A stretch of 64,000 bases of DNA, taken from NCBI GenBank assembly GCA_948473115.1, contig CAOKWI010000003.1:44239-108238 (forward strand), in the 5' to 3' direction. Below, piece after piece: positions 6,292-64,000 of this stretch. The stretch comes from an uncultured Lachnospiraceae bacterium. GTDB taxonomy: Bacteria; Bacillota; Clostridia; Lachnospirales; Lachnospiraceae. Within the stretch, counting starts at the first letter, position 1. Each line of letters opens with the position of its first letter. The translations under genes and the position numbers were made by a program. Under the pieces are notes generated by a model that searched no databases, was not told the origin of the DNA, and saw only the letters and a list, made by a program, of their open reading frames with translations.

Positions 6292-7415
6292 AAAACCGTC
6301 TTCCCCATCCATTCCGCCAGCTCCTCCGGCGTCATGGCTCCCACAAAGGCGCCCATATCCGCCAGTTCCGCCGCGGCATTTCTATTATAATTTGGAACCG
6401 CCTCCATATCCAGCGCCGTCAGCACCACCAGCTTCGCACCGCTCTCAATGATCCCCCGGGCAACACTGTAAAGAGGCTGGCAACTCCCGCCCTCATACAG
6501 ATCCGTGACTAACACCACCATGGTACGATAAGGAAAATCGATCAGCCCTTCACAGTAGGACAAAGCCCCGGCAATATTGGTGCCTCCTCCCAGCTGAATG
6601 CTCATCAGCGTCTCCACAGGGTCTTCCACGTAACCGCTGAGATCCACCACATTGGTGTCGAATATGACCAGCCTGGTGTCCAGCATGGGCAGCTTTGCAA
6701 AGATACCTGCCATGACCGCGCTGTGAATCACGGAATCCAGCATGGAACCGCTCTCATCCACACATATCACCACACGCCACCGGTGATATTTTCTCATGCG
6801 GGAATTGAAATAAACCTTTTCCAATATCAGCTGTCGGCGCTCCGTGTCATAGTTTTTCAGGTTCCTGCGGATGGTTTTCTTCATATCCAGATTTCTGGCC
6901 GATCTCACCGGACTGCTGGCGTTGCGGTCCAGCTGGCCGAAGAAGGATCTTCTGACCTCCTGCTCCAGCTTCCCCGCTATTTCCTCCGCCACTTTCTTCA
7001 CGATCTCCCTGGCCAGTTCCAGCACTTCACCCTTCATCATGTGCTTCAGTTCCAGGATGGTCTTTAAAAGCTCCTTATTCGGCTCCAGCTTCCTCAGCAC
7101 CTCCGGATCCGTAACCAGTTCCGTCATTCCATACTTTTCCAGCGCGTGTCTCTCCAGGATCTCCACTGTCCGCTTTGGGAACAGCCTTTTGATCTGGCGC
7201 AGCCAGTAAGGCACGGTAAGGCGGGAGCCTTCGCTGCCTCCCGTCCTGTCCTTACGCACCTCCTGCTCCTCGCCATACTCCCTGGAGTACAGGTAATCCA
7301 ATACGCTTTCCATATCCATATAATTGATCTCACCGGAAGAAAAAGAAATCTGTCCGGCGGAATATTTCCCCAGAACCAGCCGCCACCGGTTCAGTATCTC
7401 CTGCTCGTCAGCCAT
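6288..7415 (-). CDS. vWA-domain protein partner of the MoxR ATPase
   Basis: The protein has 375 residues. I chose ATG 7415 because GGAGGTGG sits at ideal spacing before it. An in-frame GTG three codons earlier is the alternative. Residues 1-210 are helical and charged. A C-terminal von Willebrand A domain follows, with the metal site DESGS at about 220-224, a GGGTN segment, and VLVTDLYEGG as the third metal-site loop. In MoxR systems the vWA protein is the metal-dependent adaptor that docks the AAA+ ring on its client. The gene lies 42 bases after the DUF5682 gene and its stop overlaps the following micro-ORF. Confidence 0.9.
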   Translation of the reverse strand: MADEQEILNRWRLVLGKYSAGQISFSSGEINYMDMESVLDYLYSREYGEEQEVRKDRTGGSEGSRLTVPYWLRQIKRLFPKRTVEILERHALEKYGMTELVTDPEVLRKLEPNKELLKTILELKHMMKGEVLELAREIVKKVAEEIAGKLEQEVRRSFFGQLDRNASSPVRSARNLDMKKTIRRNLKNYDTERRQLILEKVYFNSRMRKYHRWRVVICVDESGSMLDSVIHSAVMAGIFAKLPMLDTRLVIFDTNVVDLSGYVEDPVETLMSIQLGGGTNIAGALSYCEGLIDFPYRTMVVLVTDLYEGGSCQPLYSVARGIIESGAKLVVLTALDMEAVPNYNRNAAAELADMGAFVGAMTPEELAEWMGKTVL

Positions 7416-53801: not shown

Positions 53802-54900
53802 ATTAAATGCGACACTTTTTTAATTTTTTTCACCCGATTTTCTTAAGCTCTTCCTCGAAGAGTTCCCCGGCAGAATGATAGCCATGTATGCGGCGGGGAT
53901 AGTTATTTATCCAGTTTTCCATTGCCTCTACCTCTGCGTCTGTCATTCCGTCAAAATTTGTCCCCTTTGGTACTTTGCGCCGTACCATTTTATTAGTAAC
54001 CTCATTTGTGCCACGCTCCCAGCTGCTATACGGGTGGCAGTAATATAGCTGCGTCCGTTTCCCCTCACCCAGTATAGAGCGTTCCAGCTCTTCACAATAT
54101 GCAAACTCACTGCCATTATCTACGGTTATGCTTTTAAAGACTTGCTTAAACATACCGCCCCATTTTCTTTCTAATGCGTCTAAAGCATCTACTACCGCCT
54201 CTGCCGTCTTGTCCGGCAGCTTAAATATGATCTCGTCCCGCGTCTTTCTTTCCGTCAGTACCAGCAGGGTATTTTTAGATTTCCCCCGCTGCCCTATTAC
54301 GCTATCCATTTCCCAGTGTCCGAACTCTTCCCGCTTGTCTACCTCTTCCGGGCGCTTTTCTATGCTTGTGCCTGCTGCCGCCCGCGCCTGCTGCCTCTTC
54401 ACTTTCTTATAGTCCCTCTTCTTGTTTGCCTTTACTGGTAAATCTTTATTTGTAAGCTGTAGAAAGATACCCTTATCAATATAGCTGTAAAGTGTCGTTA
54501 CGCAGATCGTAACGGAAAATTCCCCCTCTTTCCCTTGTGCCTTAAGCTCTCCCAGAACGGCAGCCGGGCTATATCCCTCATTTACTATTTTATCCTCTAT
54601 ATAATTTGCTAACTTAATATCGTTGCCGATCTTAAGAACGCCGCCCTTGCTTTTCAGATTCTCCCTGTACTTATCGTCTGCAATATCCGGGCTGTATCGC
54701 TCTTCCTGCGTGAGATCAGAATTAAGCGCGGTATAAACTCCCCTCTTTATTTCCCGGTATATTGTGCTGCGGTGTACATGCAGCATGTCTGCGATCTCTT
54801 TTTTACCATGTCCTGCCTTTAGCAATGCTTCTAATTTTATCCGATCTGCCTTTGTTAAATGCTTACCCATTTTTCTTACCTCTCTTTTGTCCCATATACG
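53802..54900. mobile_element. IS30-family insertion sequence
   Basis: A transposase gene fills the element. Candidate ends are TAAATGCGACA (53804-53814) and TGTCCCATATA (54888-54898), which are imperfect inverted repeats. The size of about 1.1 kb is normal for IS30. No target duplication can be recognised. It sits exactly at the border between the chromosomal repair gene and prophage DNA. Confidence 0.75.
53830..54870 (-). CDS. IS30-family transposase
   Basis: The protein has 346 residues. An N-terminal helix-turn-helix (LLKAGHGKKEIADMLHVHRSTIYREIKRG) is followed by the DDE catalytic domain: Asp in HWEMDSVIG, Asp in ITVDNGSEFA and the Glu in SSWERGTNEVTNKMVRRKVPKGT. The ending YPRRIHGYHSAGELF is family-typical. 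It is full-length and apparently intact. Its codon usage is close to that of the prophage genes. Confidence 0.95.
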   Translation of the reverse strand: MGKHLTKADRIKLEALLKAGHGKKEIADMLHVHRSTIYREIKRGVYTALNSDLTQEERYSPDIADDKYRENLKSKGGVLKIGNDIKLANYIEDKIVNEGYSPAAVLGELKAQGKEGEFSVTICVTTLYSYIDKGIFLQLTNKDLPVKANKKRDYKKVKRQQARAAAGTSIEKRPEEVDKREEFGHWEMDSVIGQRGKSKNTLLVLTERKTRDEIIFKLPDKTAEAVVDALDALERKWGGMFKQVFKSITVDNGSEFAYCEELERSILGEGKRTQLYYCHPYSSWERGTNEVTNKMVRRKVPKGTNFDGMTDAEVEAMENWINNYPRRIHGYHSAGELFEEELKKIG

Positions 54901-56309: not shown

Positions 56310-57785
56310 TTATAACCTTGTGCAATAGTCCAGCGATACCCAGCCGTCCCTATTCTCTTCATACGCTTTCAGCAGCCCCCAGCCTGCGGCGCTGCCCTCT
56401 CCGGCTTTTACCTCAACAATGGTAAACACTCCGATTCCTGTATACTTTCCCGTCTTTGCAAAGTCCGTGCCTGCGCCCGCCCTTATTCTAAGATCGGTTA
56501 TATCTACCTTTACCTTAAAGGGAATCTTTGCCGCCTCTGTCTTTCCCTGTCCTGCGTTTCCGGCTGCCCCGGTTCCGGCGTACCTGTCGTAATACTCCTG
56601 CCCGTATGCTGCCCGGCGCTGCTTTACTGCCTCGCTCTGGTCTTCTGGCTTTTCGTACCCGGTCAGCACTGCATCAGAGGCAGCCCGTACCGACGTTGCA
56701 GCCATAAGCGCGGAAATAACGCCCTTGTAGCCCTGTAATTCCTGCCACAAAAAGGCAAGCTGCATATCTAAGCAGCCTATAGACGCGCCCGCCGTTTTCG
56801 CGTAATAATATAGCGCCTGTTTGCGGCTGTAGTACGTCCACTGTGCAAGCCCGTAGCCTGCGCTGTCCCTCACAAAATTTGTATAGCTGCCGCTGTCTAC
56901 AGCCGCCGTATATTCTGCGTCCGTCATTTCCAGCTGCGTATTAAAGGAATTTTGCAGATTATCTGCTTTAAGCCCGCTTTCTGCAAAAAGGTTCCCCATA
57001 AGCCCGGCTGTTGCATAGGCATTTAAGCCTTTGCCTGTCAGAAAAGCCCAGATCATGCTTTCCGCGCCGCCTGCTGCCGTCTGCTGCTCATTTCCTGCAA
57101 AAGCGCTGTATACTGCCTTTCCGTCCCAGTCATACACATTATAGCCAGCAATGCAGGCTTTCTTTGCATTTTCCAGACTTTCAAAAGCTCCCAGCTGCCC
57201 GGCTGCATCTTCCCAGCGCTTACGCACCCTGTAAAGTTTCTTTCCCCCGCTCCCGGCAGAGGCAGCGCCGCCGCTTATCAGCTTTTTAAACTCGTCCCAT
57301 GTATGCGCTGTTGTGTTATATACATACGGGTTAGGGCAAATTTTCCCGGTAACGTCGTAATGCCTTATGACATGATCGGCAGGCACGCCGTACTTATCCA
57401 TTAAGTACCTTGTCAACTCTGCCGCCGCCTCTACCGTCGCGTCCTCAAAATACCAGTCCTTATCTGTCGCGCCCTGGCTGGCGGTGTTCCTTTTCCTTAC
57501 GCATAACTCAATACCTATGCTGTTTGCGTTCCGGCACTCCCCATGCTTATAGCTCTTTGCGCCGCAGTGCCACGCTATGTTAGCATCTTCCACGCACTGC
57601 CAGATTTCCCCGTTGTGATCTACAAAGTAATGTGCGGACGCATTTCTATTGCCGCCTGCAAAATATTTACAGTTTGCCTGCGCCCCGCTCAAACCGCCCA
57701 CGTAATGAATTACAATGTACTTGATACGGGAAACGCTGCCCGGATTGAAATTGTACCCGCTTATCAGCCTGTTAATGTTCCTCAT
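56310..57785 (-). CDS. Modular endolysin: amidase, tail-lysozyme-like and SH3 domains
   Basis: The protein has 491 residues. The N-terminal N-acetylmuramoyl-L-alanine amidase (Amidase_2) has YIVIHYVGGLSG, SAHYFVDHNGEIWQCV and DHVIRHYDVTGKICPNP, with zinc ligands His, His and Cys visible. The middle has a phage-tail-lysozyme-like module (IWAFLTGKGLNAYATAGLMGNLFAESGL and AGYGLAQWTYYSRK). The C-terminus is an SH3-type wall-binding domain (VDITDLRIRAGAGTDFAKTG). It lyses the host at the end of the phage cycle and follows the holin gene. Confidence 0.93.
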   Translation of the reverse strand: MRNINRLISGYNFNPGSVSRIKYIVIHYVGGLSGAQANCKYFAGGNRNASAHYFVDHNGEIWQCVEDANIAWHCGAKSYKHGECRNANSIGIELCVRKRNTASQGATDKDWYFEDATVEAAAELTRYLMDKYGVPADHVIRHYDVTGKICPNPYVYNTTAHTWDEFKKLISGGAASAGSGGKKLYRVRKRWEDAAGQLGAFESLENAKKACIAGYNVYDWDGKAVYSAFAGNEQQTAAGGAESMIWAFLTGKGLNAYATAGLMGNLFAESGLKADNLQNSFNTQLEMTDAEYTAAVDSGSYTNFVRDSAGYGLAQWTYYSRKQALYYYAKTAGASIGCLDMQLAFLWQELQGYKGVISALMAATSVRAASDAVLTGYEKPEDQSEAVKQRRAAYGQEYYDRYAGTGAAGNAGQGKTEAAKIPFKVKVDITDLRIRAGAGTDFAKTGKYTGIGVFTIVEVKAGEGSAAGWGLLKAYEENRDGWVSLDYCTRL

Positions 57786-57872
57786 GCCTTTTACGTCCTT
57801 TCTGCAATGAAATAAGCGCCTACGGTTTCCCGTAAGCGCCCTTTGCTGCTTTTCCTGTCTGATCTGTTATTC

Positions 57873-58361
57873 TTATCTTTCCTGCTGTTTATGCCCCTCT
57901 ACGCTGCCCGTGGTGCTGTTTCCGTCCAGTTCGTCCGTGTCCGGCAGCTCGTCCGTATACTTGGAAAGAAAGCCCCGCACACTCGCCCATACCTTTTTTA
58001 CGGGCAGCCCGCATAATGCCATATTCTTAAAAATGCTTGTGATCTCATAGGCTATGTAAAGCAGGCTGAAAAACTCCGCTACTCCTACCGTCTTAAGCCC
58101 CAGATAACCCCGCGCCGTTTCCGGGATAAACCCGATCAGATTGATCTTGATAAGCATGTCGATTGCCAGCATGAATACAAGGGAAATCAGCATTGCCACT
58201 TTCCGTATTGCGCCGTCAATCCCCGCGCAGCTGTTAAATTTCTTTTCTTTCACTGCCCGCAGTACCCCGAAAATAGTATCAAATACAATCGCCAGTATTA
58301 CCAGCTCGATCACCTTATTGTGTGCCGCTGCGTCGATAAACTCCATTATTTTCATTTCCAT
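57873..58361 (-). CDS. Phage holin (toxin-secretion/lysis holin family)
   Basis: The protein has 162 residues. Three membrane segments, VIELVILAIVFDTIFGVL, VAMLISLVFMLAIDMLI and a third around FFSLLYIAYEITSIF, are typical of the TcdE-like holin_4 family (including DTIFGVLRAVKEKKFNS). The hydrophilic tail has TDELPDTDELDG. The start overlaps the previous 61-residue gene by ten bases. It permeabilises the membrane for the endolysin. Confidence 0.93.
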   Translation of the reverse strand: MEMKIMEFIDAAAHNKVIELVILAIVFDTIFGVLRAVKEKKFNSCAGIDGAIRKVAMLISLVFMLAIDMLIKINLIGFIPETARGYLGLKTVGVAEFFSLLYIAYEITSIFKNMALCGLPVKKVWASVRGFLSKYTDELPDTDELDGNSTTGSVEGHKQQER

Positions 58362-58537
58362 AAATCCTGCCTTTCTGCTTTCTGCAAATTTAATGCCCGC
58401 TCTTTCAGTTCCGCGCCGTCGTACCCTGCTACGCTCTCCCAGTTTTCCAGAGTGGCGGTTAATTCAGCAATAAGCCTGCTCTGCTTTTCAATAGTTTCCT
58501 GCTGCTCATGCAGCACTTGTAGCAAAATATTACTCAT
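58352..58537 (-). CDS. 61-residue protein between RT and holin
   Basis: MSNILLQVLHEQQETIEKQS and RLIAELTATLENWESVAGYD are predicted helical with heptad-like hydrophobics, so a short coiled coil is likely. Its start overlaps the RT stop (58534-58537, ATGA) and its end overlaps the holin start. It may regulate the holin or serve as a spacer. No family recognised. Confidence 0.7.
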   Translation of the reverse strand: MSNILLQVLHEQQETIEKQSRLIAELTATLENWESVAGYDGAELKERALNLQKAERQDLWK

Positions 58538-59628
58538 GTACTCACTCCTGCGCCTGCTGGCTGCGCTGCCTGCGCTCTCTCCTGCGCATCAGCCGCCATT
58601 TTTATTATTTTCTTTCGTAAGTGATAGCTGTCGGCGTGTCCTGCGTGTCCCGTCCAGCTTGCAATGCTCTTTTGTAGATTTTCCCTTGTGATCTCACCCC
58701 TTTCGTACTTCTTGACTGTCCGCTTGATACGTTTAATGCTGTCTGGTCTTACTTTCCTGTGTGTCGCCCTGTGCTTATAACCTACAAAGTCTATGCCGTT
58801 CTTTACGCATAAAATGGCAGTCTTTGGGTTCAGCTCTAAAATAAGCTCTTCCCTTAAGAATCTTTCAATATCAGCCAGCCAGCGCCGCAGCTCTTCCTTA
58901 TCCGGGCTTAATATAATAAAGTCGTCCATGTAGCGCATATACATACCCGCGCCCAACGTATGCTTTATGTACTGGTCTAGCTTATTAAGATAGATATTTG
59001 CGAATAGCTGGCTTGTAAGGTTCCCTACTGGTATGCCTGTACCGTCCGGCATCTGCCCGTTATGGTCTATGATCTTGTCGATCAGTGCCAGCGCCCCTGC
59101 GTCCTTTATTACTTTCCGTATCTCTGCCTTAAGCACATTATGGTTAATGCTCTGGAAATAGTGGTGTATGTCCGCTTTGATTGCATATAGCGGCGTGTCC
59201 GGGTGGAATCTCTGCCACTCATAAAGCCAGCTTTTCAGCGTGTCAGACGCAGCGTGCATACCTTTATTTTTCCGGCAGGCGTAAGAGTGGAAAATAAAAC
59301 GCTTTTCAAAAATCGGTTCCAACACGTTGTTAATGGCGTGCTGTACTACCCTGTCATAAAACGGCAGCGCCATGATCTGCCGCTCTTTCGGTTCATATAC
59401 CTTAAAATATCGGTACTCGCTCGGCTCATAGGAAAGCCCCAAAATTTCATTTCGTACCCGCTCTAAATTTTCCTCTTTGTCTTTGGTAAATATTAAAACG
59501 TCCTTGCGGTATCGCTTGCACTTCCGGGCTTTATTGTATGCTTTCTGCACACTCCCGTAGTCAGCCATAGCCTCTACAAGCGTAAGCCGCCTGCCGTTTT
59601 TGTCCGTGATATGCCCTATTCGTTTCAT
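58534..59628 (-). CDS. Diversity-generating retroelement reverse transcriptase
   Basis: The protein has 364 residues from ATG 59628 (GGCAGGAG upstream). The RT core has YRYFKVYEPKERQIMALPFYDR, YAIKADIHHYFQSINH (motif A), GIPVGNLTSQ at about 198-207 and the active site YMDD at about 233-236. GNLTSQ is the DGR-type motif 4, where group II introns have QGGxxSP. No maturase or endonuclease domain is present. The gene lies 165 bases after the template repeat and follows target, accessory gene and template in the usual DGR order. It reverse-transcribes the template RNA with adenine mutagenesis. Confidence 0.95.
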   Translation of the reverse strand: MKRIGHITDKNGRRLTLVEAMADYGSVQKAYNKARKCKRYRKDVLIFTKDKEENLERVRNEILGLSYEPSEYRYFKVYEPKERQIMALPFYDRVVQHAINNVLEPIFEKRFIFHSYACRKNKGMHAASDTLKSWLYEWQRFHPDTPLYAIKADIHHYFQSINHNVLKAEIRKVIKDAGALALIDKIIDHNGQMPDGTGIPVGNLTSQLFANIYLNKLDQYIKHTLGAGMYMRYMDDFIILSPDKEELRRWLADIERFLREELILELNPKTAILCVKNGIDFVGYKHRATHRKVRPDSIKRIKRTVKKYERGEITRENLQKSIASWTGHAGHADSYHLRKKIIKMAADAQERAQAAQPAGAGVST

Positions 59629-59793
59629 GTAAAAAGCTCCTGCCTTTCGCCTTAAGCTACTAACCAGCAGCCCTGCTTTTTCTCTTTGCCTTGCGGCGGG
59701 ACAACCCCTCTGATTCTGGAATATTAAGCACTCTTAATATTCAAACCCTTGCTAGTGTTCCTTAGATACGCTAAGCCTGTAATGCTTTCACCA

Positions 59794-59919
59794 AATCACA
59801 CGCCCCGCGCACGCCGATATTCGTGTTCACGTTCCACGGGTAATTGTTGCAATTCACGGCACGCGCGCCCGCGTTCACGCCATTGTTCCAGTTGCCGCCC
59901 GCGATCAGCGCCGCCAGAG
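59794..59919 (-). repeat. DGR template repeat (TR), 126 bp
   Basis: Identical in length to the variable repeat at 60359-60484. The two differ at 12 sites. At all 12 the template strand has A, in Asn or Thr codons (AAC, AAT, ACG). It contains 25 adenines, many clustered in AAY codons, as is usual in templates. It lies between the accessory gene and the RT gene and is not translated. Confidence 0.97.
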
Positions 59920-59951
59920 GGCTGTAATAAGCGGCTGCCCCATATGAAAAG

Positions 59952-60308
59952 CTATTTTGCAGCTTTTACCTCTTCTATGATCTCCCCCAGCATAACGCCC
60001 AGCTCCGTAAGTTTCCTGCCGCACTCCCCGTAATGCTGCTTATTCATTGCGCTGTATTTCAGATCATTTGCCAGCCGCAGCAGCTCCTTACTCTGCTGCA
60101 ATGCCACATCTGCCGCGTACAAGTGGCTTTTCGTCGCCGTTTTCTGCCACTTTATAACGTCTTGCAGCATTTCCAGCACGGCGTTTCTGGTTGCCGTCTG
60201 CAAGCTGAATTTTTCATACTTTGGGTACTTGCTTAGCAGGGGATATATGTACAGCAGGAAATCATATATTTTCTGGTGTAGTATGTCGCCTTTATCTCTT
60301 ATTGACAT
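59952..60308 (-). CDS. avd: Avd-type DGR accessory protein
   Basis: The protein has 118 residues, all helical, in a pattern of a four-helix bundle (ILHQKIYDFLLYIYPLLSKYPKYEKFSLQT, ATRNAVLEMLQDVIKWQKT, LQQSKELLRLANDLKY, GRKLTELGVMLGEIIEEVK). This sequence pattern and place, between target and template, identify Avd. In Bordetella phage, Avd forms a basic barrel that binds RT and template RNA. Overall charge here is also basic. Confidence 0.93.
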   Translation of the reverse strand: MSIRDKGDILHQKIYDFLLYIYPLLSKYPKYEKFSLQTATRNAVLEMLQDVIKWQKTATKSHLYAADVALQQSKELLRLANDLKYSAMNKQHYGECGRKLTELGVMLGEIIEEVKAAK

Positions 60309-60325
60309 TTTTTATCCGTCCCCCT

Positions 60326-60354
60326 GTAGCGGCTGGGCTTTCGCCCGCCTCTAC
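60326..60354 (-). other. Hairpin with GAAA loop directly behind the variable repeat
   Basis: GTAG-A-GGC-GGGC, GAAA and GCCC-A-GCC-G-CTAC pair over 11 bases with one bulge and one mismatch. It begins four bases after the VR end and overlaps the target stop codon. In Bordetella phage BPP-1 a hairpin at this distance with a GRNA-type loop boosts retrohoming. Confidence 0.85.
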
Positions 60355-61493
60355 ATAGAATCACACGCCCCGCGCACGCCGATAGACGCGCCCACGTGCC
60401 ACGGGTAATCGTCGCAATTCACGGCACGCGCGCCCGCGTTCACGCCATGGCTCCAGCAGCCGCCCGCGATCAGCGCCGCCAGAGAATACGCGTAATACTG
60501 GTAAATGTTTCCTACGTCGTACTTTGTGGCATTATCCTTTAAGGGGCTTTTCTTATCCCAGCCCCACGCCGCCGTAGGGTGATAGTCTGCATTTGTGGCG
60601 TGTTCTGCCCGCGTAATCAGATCATTAAGCCATTCCCAGACGCGCCCCACGGCATCAACGCAGCCCACGGCAGAAACGGCATTTACCACGCTGCCCGTAG
60701 TCCCCCTGCCCGTGTTCGTCGTCGCCGTCCATGCGTTTGTATTTGCCCCGTCAAGCCCCTGCGGGCTGCCGAAAGCATAAGCGCAAAATTCGCTGTAGTC
60801 CGGCATACGCTTACCGCTTTTCATAAGCCTTTCCGTGAACGTGTACCAGTTCATGCCCTCCGTACCTGTCATTGGCGCACAATTATATTCCGACTTCAAG
60901 CCCTGTGCGCCGTCGTCAGAATTAAGATAAATGTCTACCCATGTGCCGCCGCCCAGATATACCATACCCTCCGGGCTGCATTTCGGGCGGTGTCCCAGCG
61001 TCCATACGCTGCGCGGCACAATCCCGTTGCTTACCGCGCTTTCCCAGCCCGTACCGAAAATAGCGCCGCTGCTGTTCACGGGCTGCAAGTTTTCATTGAT
61101 CTTACGGCAGCGCCCATAATGAAAGCCGCCGATCTTGCGGCTGTTGCTGGCGTTCCACCCGCTCGGATATGTAGAGTTAAGGGAAATAATATACTGCTCG
61201 TCCTGTGCGTCCTGCCTGCTGTCGCAGATATAAACGTAATAGTCGCAGCCCACGGAAAAAGCCGCGCCTACGTCCAGATTAGAGGCATTAAGTACCGTGT
61301 TCCCCGTCTGGAAGATACCAGCGCCTCCCACGGCAATTACGCAGCCCTCTATTACGGTGATCTCATTCGCCCCGCTTGCGTATAAATACTGGCTCGTCGG
61401 CGCTACAATGTCGCTGATCGTCGCCAGCTTGTTTACATTCAAAAGCGCCCTGCGGTCTGTCTTTGTCACATCATCAACAAATATCCTACTCAT
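60351..61493 (-). CDS. DGR variable target protein (C-type-lectin-like tail protein)
   Basis: The protein has 380 residues from ATG 61493, overlapping the stop of the preceding gene. The N-terminal half is a beta-rich phage-like domain. The C-terminal ~200 residues are the FGE-type C-lectin fold of DGR targets (GMNWYTFTERLMKSGKRMPDYSEF, VWEWLNDLI, then GGCWSHGVNAGARAVN and GASIGVRGACD). Variable residues lie where TR encodes Asn or Thr: Cys, Ser, His, Asp, Asp, His, Gly, Ala, Ser replace them. It is the presumed receptor-binding protein of the prophage and changes by template-driven mutagenesis. Confidence 0.95.
   Translation of the reverse strand: MSRIFVDDVTKTDRRALLNVNKLATISDIVAPTSQYLYASGANEITVIEGCVIAVGGAGIFQTGNTVLNASNLDVGAAFSVGCDYYVYICDSRQDAQDEQYIISLNSTYPSGWNASNSRKIGGFHYGRCRKINENLQPVNSSGAIFGTGWESAVSNGIVPRSVWTLGHRPKCSPEGMVYLGGGTWVDIYLNSDDGAQGLKSEYNCAPMTGTEGMNWYTFTERLMKSGKRMPDYSEFCAYAFGSPQGLDGANTNAWTATTNTGRGTTGSVVNAVSAVGCVDAVGRVWEWLNDLITRAEHATNADYHPTAAWGWDKKSPLKDNATKYDVGNIYQYYAYSLAALIAGGCWSHGVNAGARAVNCDDYPWHVGASIGVRGACDSM
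60359..60484 (-). repeat. DGR variable repeat (VR), 126 bp
   Basis: It covers the last 42 codons of the target gene. Against the template it has twelve substitutions (A to T, G or C) and no other change. The 3' end has a GC-rich stretch (ATCGGCGTGCGCGGGGCGTG), identical in TR, that serves as the initiation-of-mutagenic-homing site in known DGRs. Confidence 0.97.
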
Positions 61494-61923
61494 ACTGTTT
61501 TAACACTCCTTTCAGCGCTGTAATGTCGTCTGCGGTCATTCCTGCCACTGCCTCCGCCTTTTCCAGCCCTATAGCCGTATTTTCTGCGGTAATGCCTTTT
61601 GACAGTGTTAATACCGTCCTGTCGTTGCCCGTCTCGCCCGCTGCTGCCGCCTCGTCCGTCCGGGTATGCGTTACCGCCGTGATCGTCCCGGAAATGCCGC
61701 CAGCCACAAAAGCCATGCCCGGCGCTGCCTCGTCGCAGTAATATACTGTCACTGCTTTCTTTTCCTCTGCCACCGATACAATAGCACACTGTATGTAGCG
61801 CTGCTTTTCCAGACTTTCAATTTTTGCCAGCAGATCAGCCGCCGCCAGCTGCCCGGCTGCCACCATAGCAAGGCAGTTGTAGTAATCGTCTTTTGTCTTT
61901 AATGTTTTGGGAAATCCTTTCAT
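61486..61923 (-). CDS. Phage structural protein upstream of the DGR target
   Basis: The protein has 145 residues. An N-terminal helical part (KTKDDYYNCLAMVAAGQLAAADLLAKIESLEKQ) is followed by a beta domain with AVTVYYCDEAAPGMAFVAGG. Its stop (TAG 61486-61488) overlaps the target's start region by eight bases. Length and position suggest a tail-fibre assembly or connector protein. No family recognised. Confidence 0.7.
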   Translation of the reverse strand: MKGFPKTLKTKDDYYNCLAMVAAGQLAAADLLAKIESLEKQRYIQCAIVSVAEEKKAVTVYYCDEAAPGMAFVAGGISGTITAVTHTRTDEAAAAGETGNDRTVLTLSKGITAENTAIGLEKAEAVAGMTADDITALKGVLKQYE

Positions 61924-61938
61924 AATCTGCCCCTTTCC

Positions 61939-63075
61939 TTAAAATGTATTTGCAAGATAGGAATTGCCGATATATGCAATTCCCAATACTGCCGTTTCCT
62001 CTGTTCTTTCGTAATGCTGGCACATGTAGGCAGCTCCCAGATAGCACAAGCCTAAAACGGCATCATGCTTATAATTGATGTTCCAGCCGTTTTCAATCAG
62101 CGTAACCCGCCTGTCAAGCTCTGCCAGCGTCTCTGCCGTCGCCGTGCCTCCTGCCTCTGCCTGCTGCCGCAGCTGTTCTACCGCGTCTGTCAGCCCGTCT
62201 ATTTGCAGTTGCAGGCTGCCTGCAATGTCCCCGCCCAGCTTTTCCTTAATGTCCTCAAACCATGCGTTAAACTCGCTTTCTGCCCCTGTCTGGAAAAGCG
62301 TAATTTTCGCCATGAAAGCCGTGTAGGCTTTCAATAGCTCCGCGTCCCAGCCGTCAAGCGTGCTTTCAAAGGAATTGTACCGCTCGCTAAACTGGTTCTC
62401 GTACTGGTTAAACAGGCTTTCTGTCATGGTTATGTAGTTCTCATAAATGCCCGCGATCTCGCTTAAATACTTTTCCATGTCCTGCTTATATATGCTGAAC
62501 TCGTCCAGCACTGCCTGGCTGTAGGTTTTGAAAAAGTCATTAAACTGTTTCGTCAGTACGCTTGCGTCGATCTCTTCTATTGTGCCTTTCACAATGCCAC
62601 ACAAGGCACTGTTAAAGCGCTGGTCTGTAATATCCTTTGTCTGAATCTTTGTTACGCCTTTCCCCACGTAAATATCAGCTATGGCAAGCTCCCATATTTC
62701 CGTATTCCGGGTTAATGCTGCTGCCGTAGGCTTTGCAGACGGCGCGCCCTTTAAGACGGTCAGATACATGTCCCTCTGCGTCAAGTCCCAGCGTATAATT
62801 ACCCGGTCTATGCGGTTAAGCGCCCCCTCTGCGGTGCTTAACGTAATACCCATGCTTACAGGGTTTCTGAAAGCGTAGCCGTTGATAAACGCATACCCGG
62901 CATTTACCCTGATTTCCATTTTGTCATAGGCTATAACCTGTAGCCCGTCGCTGGGTTTCGGGAAAACGCCGTTTGCTATGAACGTGGCAAAATACCACGC
63001 CCAATCCTCGGCTTTATATACCCTGTCGTATTCTTCATCTACCAGAATGGCATTGAACGGCAGACAATCAGCCAT
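61939..63075 (-). CDS. Phage baseplate/tail-fibre protein
   Basis: The protein has 378 residues. The N-terminus (MADCLPFNAILVDEEYDRVYKAEDWAWYFATFIANGVFPKP) resembles upper-baseplate (BppU-like) proteins. A long helical coiled-coil middle follows (ENYITMTESLFNQYENQFSERYNSFES, LQLQIDGLTDAVEQLRQQAE). The C-terminus is Tyr- and Gly-rich. It probably anchors the receptor-binding protein to the baseplate. It precedes the 145-residue gene by 15 bases. Confidence 0.8.
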   Translation of the reverse strand: MADCLPFNAILVDEEYDRVYKAEDWAWYFATFIANGVFPKPSDGLQVIAYDKMEIRVNAGYAFINGYAFRNPVSMGITLSTAEGALNRIDRVIIRWDLTQRDMYLTVLKGAPSAKPTAAALTRNTEIWELAIADIYVGKGVTKIQTKDITDQRFNSALCGIVKGTIEEIDASVLTKQFNDFFKTYSQAVLDEFSIYKQDMEKYLSEIAGIYENYITMTESLFNQYENQFSERYNSFESTLDGWDAELLKAYTAFMAKITLFQTGAESEFNAWFEDIKEKLGGDIAGSLQLQIDGLTDAVEQLRQQAEAGGTATAETLAELDRRVTLIENGWNINYKHDAVLGLCYLGAAYMCQHYERTEETAVLGIAYIGNSYLANTF

Positions 63076-63080
63076 GCTTT

Positions 63081-64000
63081 TTACCTCACTTTCCTTATCT
63101 GGTCTACCAGCGTAGGCAGGCTGTCCCCAAACGTCGCCTCTATTTCCTCTGCGCCTTTCTGGTATGTCTCTGTTACCTCTGTTATGCGTGCGTCAATCTG
63201 TATGCCCCACTTTGTTTCCTTGCATGTGATCCTGTCCCCTAAATCAAAATCCTGCTTAAACTTAAGGTTGGAATTTGTGTTAATGGTGCTTACAAAATTT
63301 ATGATCTTTCCGTAGTTTTCCAGCTCTGCCGCCGCCCTTGTCTTAAGCATCTGCAAATAGGTATTAAGCGGTATTGTTACCTCTGTTTCCCCGCTCTGGT
63401 ATTTCCGGGCTATGTCCGTCGCGTCACAAAATACCTCTGTCAGCTCCAGACCAGACGCGCCCTCACCGTCTACCGTCGTCACGGGCTGGCTGCCGCTGTC
63501 GTCTGCCGCGCCCTGTATGTAAATGAAATTCCCGCAGTTTTCTATACTGGCTGTATATTCCTGCTCATTTACATTGTCAAAATCCCTTGAAAAGATACAA
63601 GGCGTGTTGCCCTCGCTGTTTTTCGCGGTAAGGTCTTTGCCCTTATACAGATAAAAGCCGTACTGCCGCGATCTCTCGTTAATCAGAATGTCATATCCCA
63701 GCTTTCCTGCCTGCGCCCTCGCCTTTACTTCCTGCCCCAGCTTTGCGTATACCTCGTTTGCATACTCTACTGCGCTGCCTGCTATGGTTTCCTGCGCCAG
63801 CATGATAAAGCGCGGGAAACGTCGCTTTGTACTCGCACTGCTGCCGCAGTTATTCTTTACCATTGTGTTAATAAGGCTCTGGTTCGTCGCCGTCGCTATG
63901 ATCTGCGGGTTTATGCAGCGCTTGTTAAGCCACCAGCTAAGCATATAGCCCTGTGCCTCTATCTGCTCTAGCCCGTTCTCGTCTTTGGTAATGTGTACAT
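63081..64000 (-). CDS. Phage tail protein, siphovirus Gp37-like (5' end missing)
   Basis: 306 codons are open to the window edge. The N-terminus lies beyond it. The sequence (LSWWLNKRCINPQIIATATN, RFPRFIMLAQETIAGSAVEYANEVYAKLG, DLGDRITCKETKWGIQIDARITEVTETYQKG) resembles ReqiPepy6 Gp37-like tail proteins. These form part of the tail tip in siphoviruses of Gram-positive hosts. It ends six bases before the baseplate gene. Confidence 0.8.
   Translation of the reverse strand, partial: VHITKDENGLEQIEAQGYMLSWWLNKRCINPQIIATATNQSLINTMVKNNCGSSASTKRRFPRFIMLAQETIAGSAVEYANEVYAKLGQEVKARAQAGKLGYDILINERSRQYGFYLYKGKDLTAKNSEGNTPCIFSRDFDNVNEQEYTASIENCGNFIYIQGAADDSGSQPVTTVDGEGASGLELTEVFCDATDIARKYQSGETEVTIPLNTYLQMLKTRAAAELENYGKIINFVSTINTNSNLKFKQDFDLGDRITCKETKWGIQIDARITEVTETYQKGAEEIEATFGDSLPTLVDQIRKVR

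What the first reader, a model, noticed from the sequence alone, without database searches (positions are those of the whole stretch)
58534..61493. Complete diversity-generating retroelement in a prophage tail module
Template (59794-59919) and variable repeat (60359-60484) are each 126 bp. They differ at exactly 12 positions. On the coding strand every one is A in the template (AAC to TGC, AGC, GAC, CAC, GGC; AAT to CAT, GAT, TCT; ACG to GCG), and all other bases match. Nine residues of the lectin-like C-terminus are altered. The four parts (target, Avd, TR, RT with GNLTSQ and YMDD) are in canonical order. This indicates an active or recently active system that retargets phage or cell binding.
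Basis: seen in the sequence. Interest (0 to 1): 0.95.

Follow-up and report, generated by a model that had tools for sequence, protein, structure and literature searches.

The report
Active self-rewriting phage tail protein
A prophage in a Lachnospiraceae bacterium carries a complete retroelement whose template stays nearly constant while the matching end of a predicted tail protein differs, almost only at template adenines, in each of the four close relatives compared; it is therefore likely an active system, predicted to let the phage change what it binds, and it is a clear but ordinary example of a known kind.

Summary
The target is a homologue of Mtd, the tropism protein of Bordetella phage BPP-1. 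Relatives support recent activity. In five close prophages (the window and four with RTs 95-99% identical to it) VR pairs differ at 13-20 of 25 template-adenine positions but 1-4 of 101 others, while TR pairs differ at 1-5 of 126. At the five non-adenine columns where TRs differ, each VR carries its own TR's base (25 of 25 cells). Among 119 listed database relatives of the target, the largest group with an identical 337-residue body (20 proteins) varies at exactly the 14 template-adenine codons upstream of the A-free 3' stretch, and nowhere else. The last template adenine is unchanged in 15 of 15 pairs. This is a new member of a known kind. Change of binding or host is inferred, not shown. The most novel lead, an error pattern unlike that published for BPP-1, has mixed support.

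The parts
60351..61493 (-). target gene: Mtd-like predicted tail protein, 380 aa, VR at its C-terminus
   Evidence: Pfam mtd_2nd E 1.1e-41; PDB Mtd 1yu4 E 2.8e-21, second stretch on the VR; phrog_11262 tail protein E 6.3e-93
60359..60484 (-). variable repeat (VR), 126 bp
   Evidence: 12 mismatches to the TR, all at TR A
60362..60382 (-). 21-nt A-free, G/C-rich 3' stretch of the VR, candidate site of cDNA joining (IMH by analogy with BPP-1)
   Evidence: variation stops here: TR A at position 102 varies, A at 124 is unchanged in 15 of 15 pairs; residue 378 invariant in 119 of 119 proteins; A positions listed
60331..60349 (-). hairpin after the VR: 7-bp G/C stem with one bulged A, GAAA loop, 9 nt from the VR end
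   Evidence: DNA fold z -4.1; position; pairs in 70 of 70 cells of 10 aligned sequences; same type in Guo et al. 2011
59952..60308 (-). Avd accessory protein, 118 aa
   Evidence: NCBIfam NF033474 88.6 bits, cut-off 80; Pfam bAvd 72.2, cut-off 40; phrog_3206
59794..59919 (-). template repeat (TR), 126 bp, 25 A
59629..59793 (-). 165-nt spacer between TR and RT, conserved, predicted structured RNA
   Evidence: 0-3 of 165 differences among five close prophages; consensus fold, 7 of 28 pairs changed on both sides
58534..59628 (-). reverse transcriptase, 364 aa
   Evidence: PF00078 E 3.2e-21; phrog_1423 E 5e-136; PDB 8ub7 E 1e-53
61486..63998 (-). upstream phage genes: 145-aa gene without a family, 378-aa virion protein (61939-63075; PHROG labels say head), Sipho_Gp37-like tail protein cut by the contig end (63081-63998)
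56310..58361 (-). downstream lysis genes: holin (57873-58361) and endolysin (56310-57785)

Best explanation
This is a complete diversity-generating retroelement of the BPP-1 type in a prophage of a Lachnospiraceae bacterium of the same genus as Acetatifactor muris, and it has likely been rewriting the C-terminus of an Mtd-like, predicted tail protein recently and repeatedly. Inferred mechanism: RNA spanning the TR and the conserved spacer is copied by the RT with Avd, with errors opposite adenines; the cDNA replaces the VR, joining at the A-free, G/C-rich 3' stretch next to the GAAA hairpin; the TR is left as it was, so the cycle can repeat. Shown here: the parts, the adenine-only TR-to-VR differences, the nearly constant TR, the VR tracking its own genome's TR, and the sharp 3' limit of the variation. 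Inferred from BPP-1: the biochemical steps, display of the protein at the tail tip, and a switch of receptor or host.
For: (1) 12 of 12 TR/VR mismatches at TR A. (2) Five close prophages including the window: VR pairs differ at 13-20 of 25 TR-A positions and 1-4 of 101 others; TR pairs at 1-5 of 126; spacer pairs at 0-3 of 165. (3) At the five non-A columns where these TRs differ, the VR equals its own TR in 25 of 25 cells. (4) 21 distinct TR/VR pairs from 23 rows: 252 of 537 A changed, 23 of 2075 non-A changed, 18 of those 23 in the first five or last two bases of the repeat. (5) 119 target proteins: mean entropy 2.42 bits at the 15 VR codons with A in position 1 or 2, 0.007 at the 26 other VR codons, 0.035 in the rest. 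(6) 15 groups with identical 337-aa bodies, 89 proteins: 165 variable C-terminal columns, 162 in TR-A codons; the largest group, 20 proteins, differs by 6-13 residues per pair, at exactly 14 codons. (7) RT codon changes against four relatives, synonymous/other: 17/3, 14/7, 42/16, 46/17. (8) Families and solved structures as listed under parts.
Against: No experiment and no read-level data from one culture. The proteins are the best 120 of 1272 hits in a non-redundant collection, so that they are distinct is partly by construction; what counts is where they differ. No Avd match in the PDB by sequence. The lectin fold was not confirmed (model pLDDT 30.7), and the FGE-sulfatase match is below its cut-off (19.7 of 23.3 bits). 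NCBIfam's best hit for the RT is a group II intron maturase, far below its cut-off (147 of 300 bits). Five internal non-A mismatches occur in the 21 pairs. The error contexts do not follow those published for BPP-1 RT in E. coli. None of 50,697 phage records matches the cassette's DNA.
Confidence: 0.95

Rival explanations
1. The element is a relic in this lineage: its VR was diversified in the past and is now frozen.
For: One genome cannot tell active from recently active, and the phage is seen only in part.
Against: RT, Avd and target frames are open; RT changes are mostly synonymous; VRs of prophages with 95-99% identical RTs differ at more than half of the TR-A positions while carrying their own TR's base at non-A sites; proteins with identical bodies differ almost only in TR-A codons.
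Confidence: 0.07
2. The VRs differ by recombination among phages that carry different VR cassettes, not by mutagenic copying.
For: Phage tail genes recombine often (general knowledge); the TR columns 29 and 44 group the five prophages differently, which suggests some exchange.
Against: Recombination does not explain why 12 of 12 and 252 of 275 TR-to-VR changes sit on TR adenines, nor why each VR carries its own TR's base at non-A sites.
Confidence: 0.02
3. The DGR works, but the varied protein serves something other than choice of host receptor, such as adhesion of the particle to gut surfaces or other cells.
For: No binding partner is known here; [quoted passage not shown]
Against: Homology to Mtd and place among tail and lysis genes.
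Confidence: 0.15

Closest known systems
Bordetella phage BPP-1 DGR (Mtd, Avd, TR, bRT)
   Same: Same parts in the same order (order in BPP-1 recalled); target homologous to Mtd including the VR end; RT best matched by PDB 8ub7 (that 8ub7 is the BPP-1 RT complex is recalled); GAAA hairpin after the VR as in Guo et al. 2011, PMC3240598 (passages read).
   Different: Other phage and host phylum; Avd matches no PDB sequence; 7-bp stem with a bulged A, 9 nt from the VR, against 8 bp and 4 bp in BPP-1; A-to-C changes are not raised before C as measured for BPP-1 RT in E. coli (PMC12875486 section 7, read).
DGRs of gut Firmicutes phages, such as Faecalibacterium prophages (PMC11792537, passages) and a Clostridium clostridioforme prophage with RT and Avd (PMC11318856, passages)
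   Same: Prophage-borne RT with TR/VR and a tail target; Lagaffe_CP target proteins are also reported similar to Mtd.
   Different: Not compared by sequence here, except that the DNA has no match in the phage collection searched.
DGRs in other Lachnospiraceae genomes (L003-L013, L015-L027)
   Same: RT 68-99% identical; 22 of these 24 loci show an adenine-biased TR/VR pair; same hairpin type.
   Different: Different TR letters, and VR alleles that differ except in two identical pairs of rows.

Membership tests
Diversity-generating retroelement | Template and variable repeats that differ at template adenines | tested here: met
   12 of 12 mismatches at A; 252 of 537 A against 23 of 2075 other bases in 21 pairs
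Diversity-generating retroelement | Reverse transcriptase of DGR type next to the repeats | tested here: met
   GNLTSQ and YMDD in an open frame; best PDB match 8ub7 E 1e-53; phrog_1423. NCBIfam holds no passing model for it.
Diversity-generating retroelement | Accessory protein Avd | tested here: met
   NF033474 above its cut-off
Diversity-generating retroelement | TR constant while the VR changes | tested here: met
   five close prophages; L026 is an exception among relatives
Diversity-generating retroelement | RT-dependent mutagenic copying from TR to VR | not testable with these tools
   needs a culture and RT removal
BPP-1-type (Mtd/Avd) phage DGR | Target homologous to Mtd with the VR at its C-terminus | tested here: met
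BPP-1-type (Mtd/Avd) phage DGR | C-type lectin fold of the variable domain | tested here: inconclusive
   model failed, pLDDT 30.7; FGE-sulfatase below cut-off
BPP-1-type (Mtd/Avd) phage DGR | Hairpin after the VR: 7-10 bp G/C stem, GRNA loop, 4-34 bp from the VR (Guo et al. 2011) | tested here: met
   7 bp with one bulge, GAAA, 9 nt
BPP-1-type (Mtd/Avd) phage DGR | Switch of phage tropism | not testable with these tools
   needs induced phage and host strains

The most novel reading that the evidence does not exclude
This Lachnospiraceae RT lineage has its own error code: it lacks the BPP-1 rule that adenines before C turn often into C, and instead turns them mostly into G, while adenines before T turn into C at least as readily; DGR lineages would then tune which amino acids a tail protein can sample through both the RT and the template's choice of AAC or AAT.
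Probability: 0.15. Interest if true: 0.5.

Novelty: new member of a known kind. Interest (0 to 1): 0.35.

Why it matters
It gives a naturally replicated test of DGR activity: 108 different C-termini among 119 listed relatives of one tail protein, in a phage family with a relative in a deposited strain, Acetatifactor muris DSM 23669 (L018). That makes phage retargeting in Lachnospiraceae open to direct test, and offers a second RT in which to ask whether the DGR error spectrum is fixed or evolves.

Tried and rejected
Further VRs in the host assembly: none found; the TR as query gives two places, the target as query gives the target and the TR itself. The assembly is 86.6% complete.

Other RTs in the host assembly: four hits, this one among them. 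The one other that I read (L051) has GLVTSP and YADD and looks retron-like (label recalled). L052 and L053 were not read.

Rfam: no match in 57500-62000. Phage DNA: no match among 50,697 records at blastn sensitivity.

Structure model of the target: failed, pLDDT 30.7 with 17 aligned sequences; not used, no fold search made.

Hairpin covariation: one of seven pairs changes on both sides, and 50 of 500 shuffles reach that, so the support is conserved pairing, not covariation. Ten rows were aligned, of 22 sequences printed. Spacer fold: 12 rows of those 22; 0 of 500 shuffles reach the 7 pairs changed on both sides, but 495 of 500 reach the count of further pair types, and the structure was derived from the same alignment.

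Codon tables: the codon frame was wrong, and for some loci (stop codons appear inside VRs), so no codon table from either is used. The per-base counts and the TR-column listing do not depend on the frame.

TR/VR pairs: 36 sequences scanned (35 loci and the window); 33 show an A-biased pair in the rows printed. L011 and L023 show none (their contigs begin shortly before the RT); L033 shows only tandem repeats in the four rows printed. One search used 23 rows (window and 22 loci), leaving out L011, L014, L023 and L028-L037; two rows repeat others and were counted once. One search also left out L026, so 20 pairs.

Full report
What is there. On the minus strand the order is target (60351-61493), Avd (59952-60308), TR (59794-59919), RT (58534-59628); the three genes are open frames. 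TR and VR are 126 bp each with 12 mismatches, every one an A in the TR; were 12 mismatches to fall at random, all on the 25 A, the chance is 2.7e-10, and the similarity stops at the repeat ends.

What the proteins are. The RT matches PF00078 (3.2e-21), PHROG 1423 (5e-136) and, in the PDB, 8ub7 (1e-53 over residues 13-337); that 8ub7 is the BPP-1 RT complex is recalled. Avd passes the NCBIfam cut-off for DGR Avd (88.6 against 80 bits) but matches no PDB sequence. The target has Pfam's Mtd second domain (1.1e-41) and matches solved Mtd proteins (best 2.8e-21); a second, weak stretch of that match (19.7 bits) lies on the VR. The lectin fold could not be confirmed with a model.

Setting. Upstream lie a Sipho_Gp37-like tail protein and a 378-aa virion protein, downstream a holin and an endolysin. 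The nine proteins tested between 41 and 53.7 kb look like host genes, with a transposase at 53830-54870 between. The window ends with its contig, so the phage is cut in its tail genes; of a 5.2-kb stretch from the relative L015 only the last 1.57 kb is found in this assembly, at the contig end. The host shares its genus handle with G003, whose contig 45 has the length and TR position of Acetatifactor muris DSM 23669 contig 45 (L018). In that genus 6 of 138 genomes, the window's own included, give a match to the TR; some of these are weak and belong to other repeats.

A fifth part. Nine nt after the VR, at 60331-60349, lies a 7-bp G/C stem with one bulged A and a GAAA loop. Guo et al. 2011 (PMC3240598, passages read) report 7-10 bp G/C stems with GRNA loops 4-34 bp from phage VRs, and show that the structure is needed for target recognition in BPP-1. 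The stem pairs in all 10 aligned sequences; L010 has one pair changed on both sides (50 of 500 shuffles reach as much), L026 has a GGAA loop that still fits GRNA, and L013 carries the hairpin farther on. The 165 nt between TR and RT align across 12 sequences with a mean column identity of 78%. In their consensus fold 7 of 28 pairs change on both sides; 0 of 500 shuffles reach this and slid pairings give 1-4, but the structure comes from the same alignment, related sequences can exceed shuffles without structure, and the count of further pair types is reached by 495 of 500. In a family-wide sample 8 of 397 genomes match this spacer, four of them (the window's own included) over nearly its whole length.

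Is it active? In five prophages (window, L015-L018; RTs 95-99% identical to the window's) VR pairs differ at 13-20 of 25 TR-A positions and at 1-4 of 101 others; TR pairs differ at 1-5 of 126 and the spacer at 0-3 of 165. These TRs differ at five non-A columns, and in all 25 cells the VR has its own TR's base; they also differ at one A column (45, A or C). That is what repeated copying from TR to VR predicts. Over 21 distinct pairs, 252 of 537 TR A are changed in the VR against 23 of 2075 other bases; 18 of those 23 lie in the first five or last two bases of the repeat and 5 inside. RT changes against the four relatives are mostly synonymous (17/3, 14/7, 42/16 and 46/17 codons).

Many natural variants. 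A search with the target returned 1272 proteins; the best 120 were listed, 119 of them 380 aa long. In these 119 the 15 VR codons with A in position 1 or 2 have a mean entropy of 2.42 bits, the 26 other VR codons 0.007, the rest of the protein 0.035; 108 different C-termini occur. The window's own protein is not among them; its nearest body differs by 2 residues and that C-terminus by 10. Fifteen groups (89 proteins) have identical 337-aa bodies; of their 165 variable C-terminal columns, 162 are TR-A codons. In the largest group, 20 proteins, pairs differ by 6-13 residues, at 14 codons and no others. The fifteenth such codon, GAT 378, does not vary in the 119; at DNA level the same last A is unchanged in 15 of 15 pairs. 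So variation stops within the 21-nt A-free stretch 60362-60382, which fits cDNA joining at a G/C-rich 3' segment as in BPP-1. The collection is non-redundant, so distinctness itself proves little; the placing of the differences does.

A possible difference from BPP-1, with mixed support. In E. coli, BPP-1 RT puts G opposite A (A to C in the VR) more often when C follows the A than when T follows (26.8% against 2.5%; PMC12875486 section 7, read). Here I see no such rise. At four single-A codons of the 119 proteins, A to C makes up 24 of 57 and 24 of 57 changes before T (342, 371) and 3 of 30 and 4 of 39 before C (363, 369) (counted as if every TR had the window's codon; other residues, 0, 8, 1 and 1, left out). 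At DNA level in 20 pairs the changes are G 27, T 19, C 13 before T and G 55, T 7, C 8 before C (chi-square p 0.0004, on pairs related by descent). Against a reversed rule: the share of A to C alone, before C against all other contexts, does not differ significantly (8 of 70 against 36 of 178, p 0.14), and at the second A of AAC and AAT codons it is alike (45 of 152 and 27 of 93, with 87 and 39 S residues left out because S cannot be read). The first A of AAC has more A to T than that of AAT (24 of 62 against 14 of 48), as BPP-1 would predict, but not significantly (p 0.32). Selection on the protein could make all of this.

Verdict. A complete, recently active DGR of BPP-1 type: a new member of a known kind. 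Work in print already shows such elements in gut Firmicutes phages (PMC8144416, PMC11792537, PMC11318856; passages read). The listings of the searches for DGR with Lachnospiraceae and prophage (6 papers) and for two or more of Acetatifactor, prophage and retroelement (10 of 199 listed) showed no title about this cassette; I read no more of them than the passages named.

Noticed in passing
L026 7701-7826 (TR) and 7104-7229 (VR): The TR of this relative holds only 17 A (20 in L027, 22-30 in the others counted) and its VR shares the changed bases, with four more A-to-G changes: the template looks overwritten by a mutated copy, which would narrow what the element can still vary.
   Followed up: partly
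L046 828-1599 and L047 1234-1574: Other adenine-biased repeat pairs in two genomes of the same genus (G002, G012), with repeats of their own: probably further DGRs.
   Followed up: no
G000:C57 (L051 1201-2115, minus): A second reverse transcriptase of the host, with GLVTSP and YADD, retron-like by recall, beside a 413-aa gene.
   Followed up: no
59873-59876: The template itself changed here: GTG AAC in the window and L016, GTT CAC or GTT CAT in L015, L017 and L018; residue 352 is H or R in 80 of 119 proteins, so changes in the TR seem to set which residues can be sampled.
   Followed up: partly
53830-54870: A transposase-like gene (HTH_38 above its cut-off, rve just below) lies between host genes and the phage end.
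   Followed up: no
L028-L032, L034-L036: Distant relatives (mostly named Saprospiraceae) have the TR downstream of the RT and the VR about 1.7-1.8 kb from the TR, an order unlike this cassette.
   Followed up: no
L054 2877-3002: A short viral contig with a sixth close VR, again a different allele; found with an A-as-N pattern, so its adenine bias is no independent evidence.
   Followed up: no
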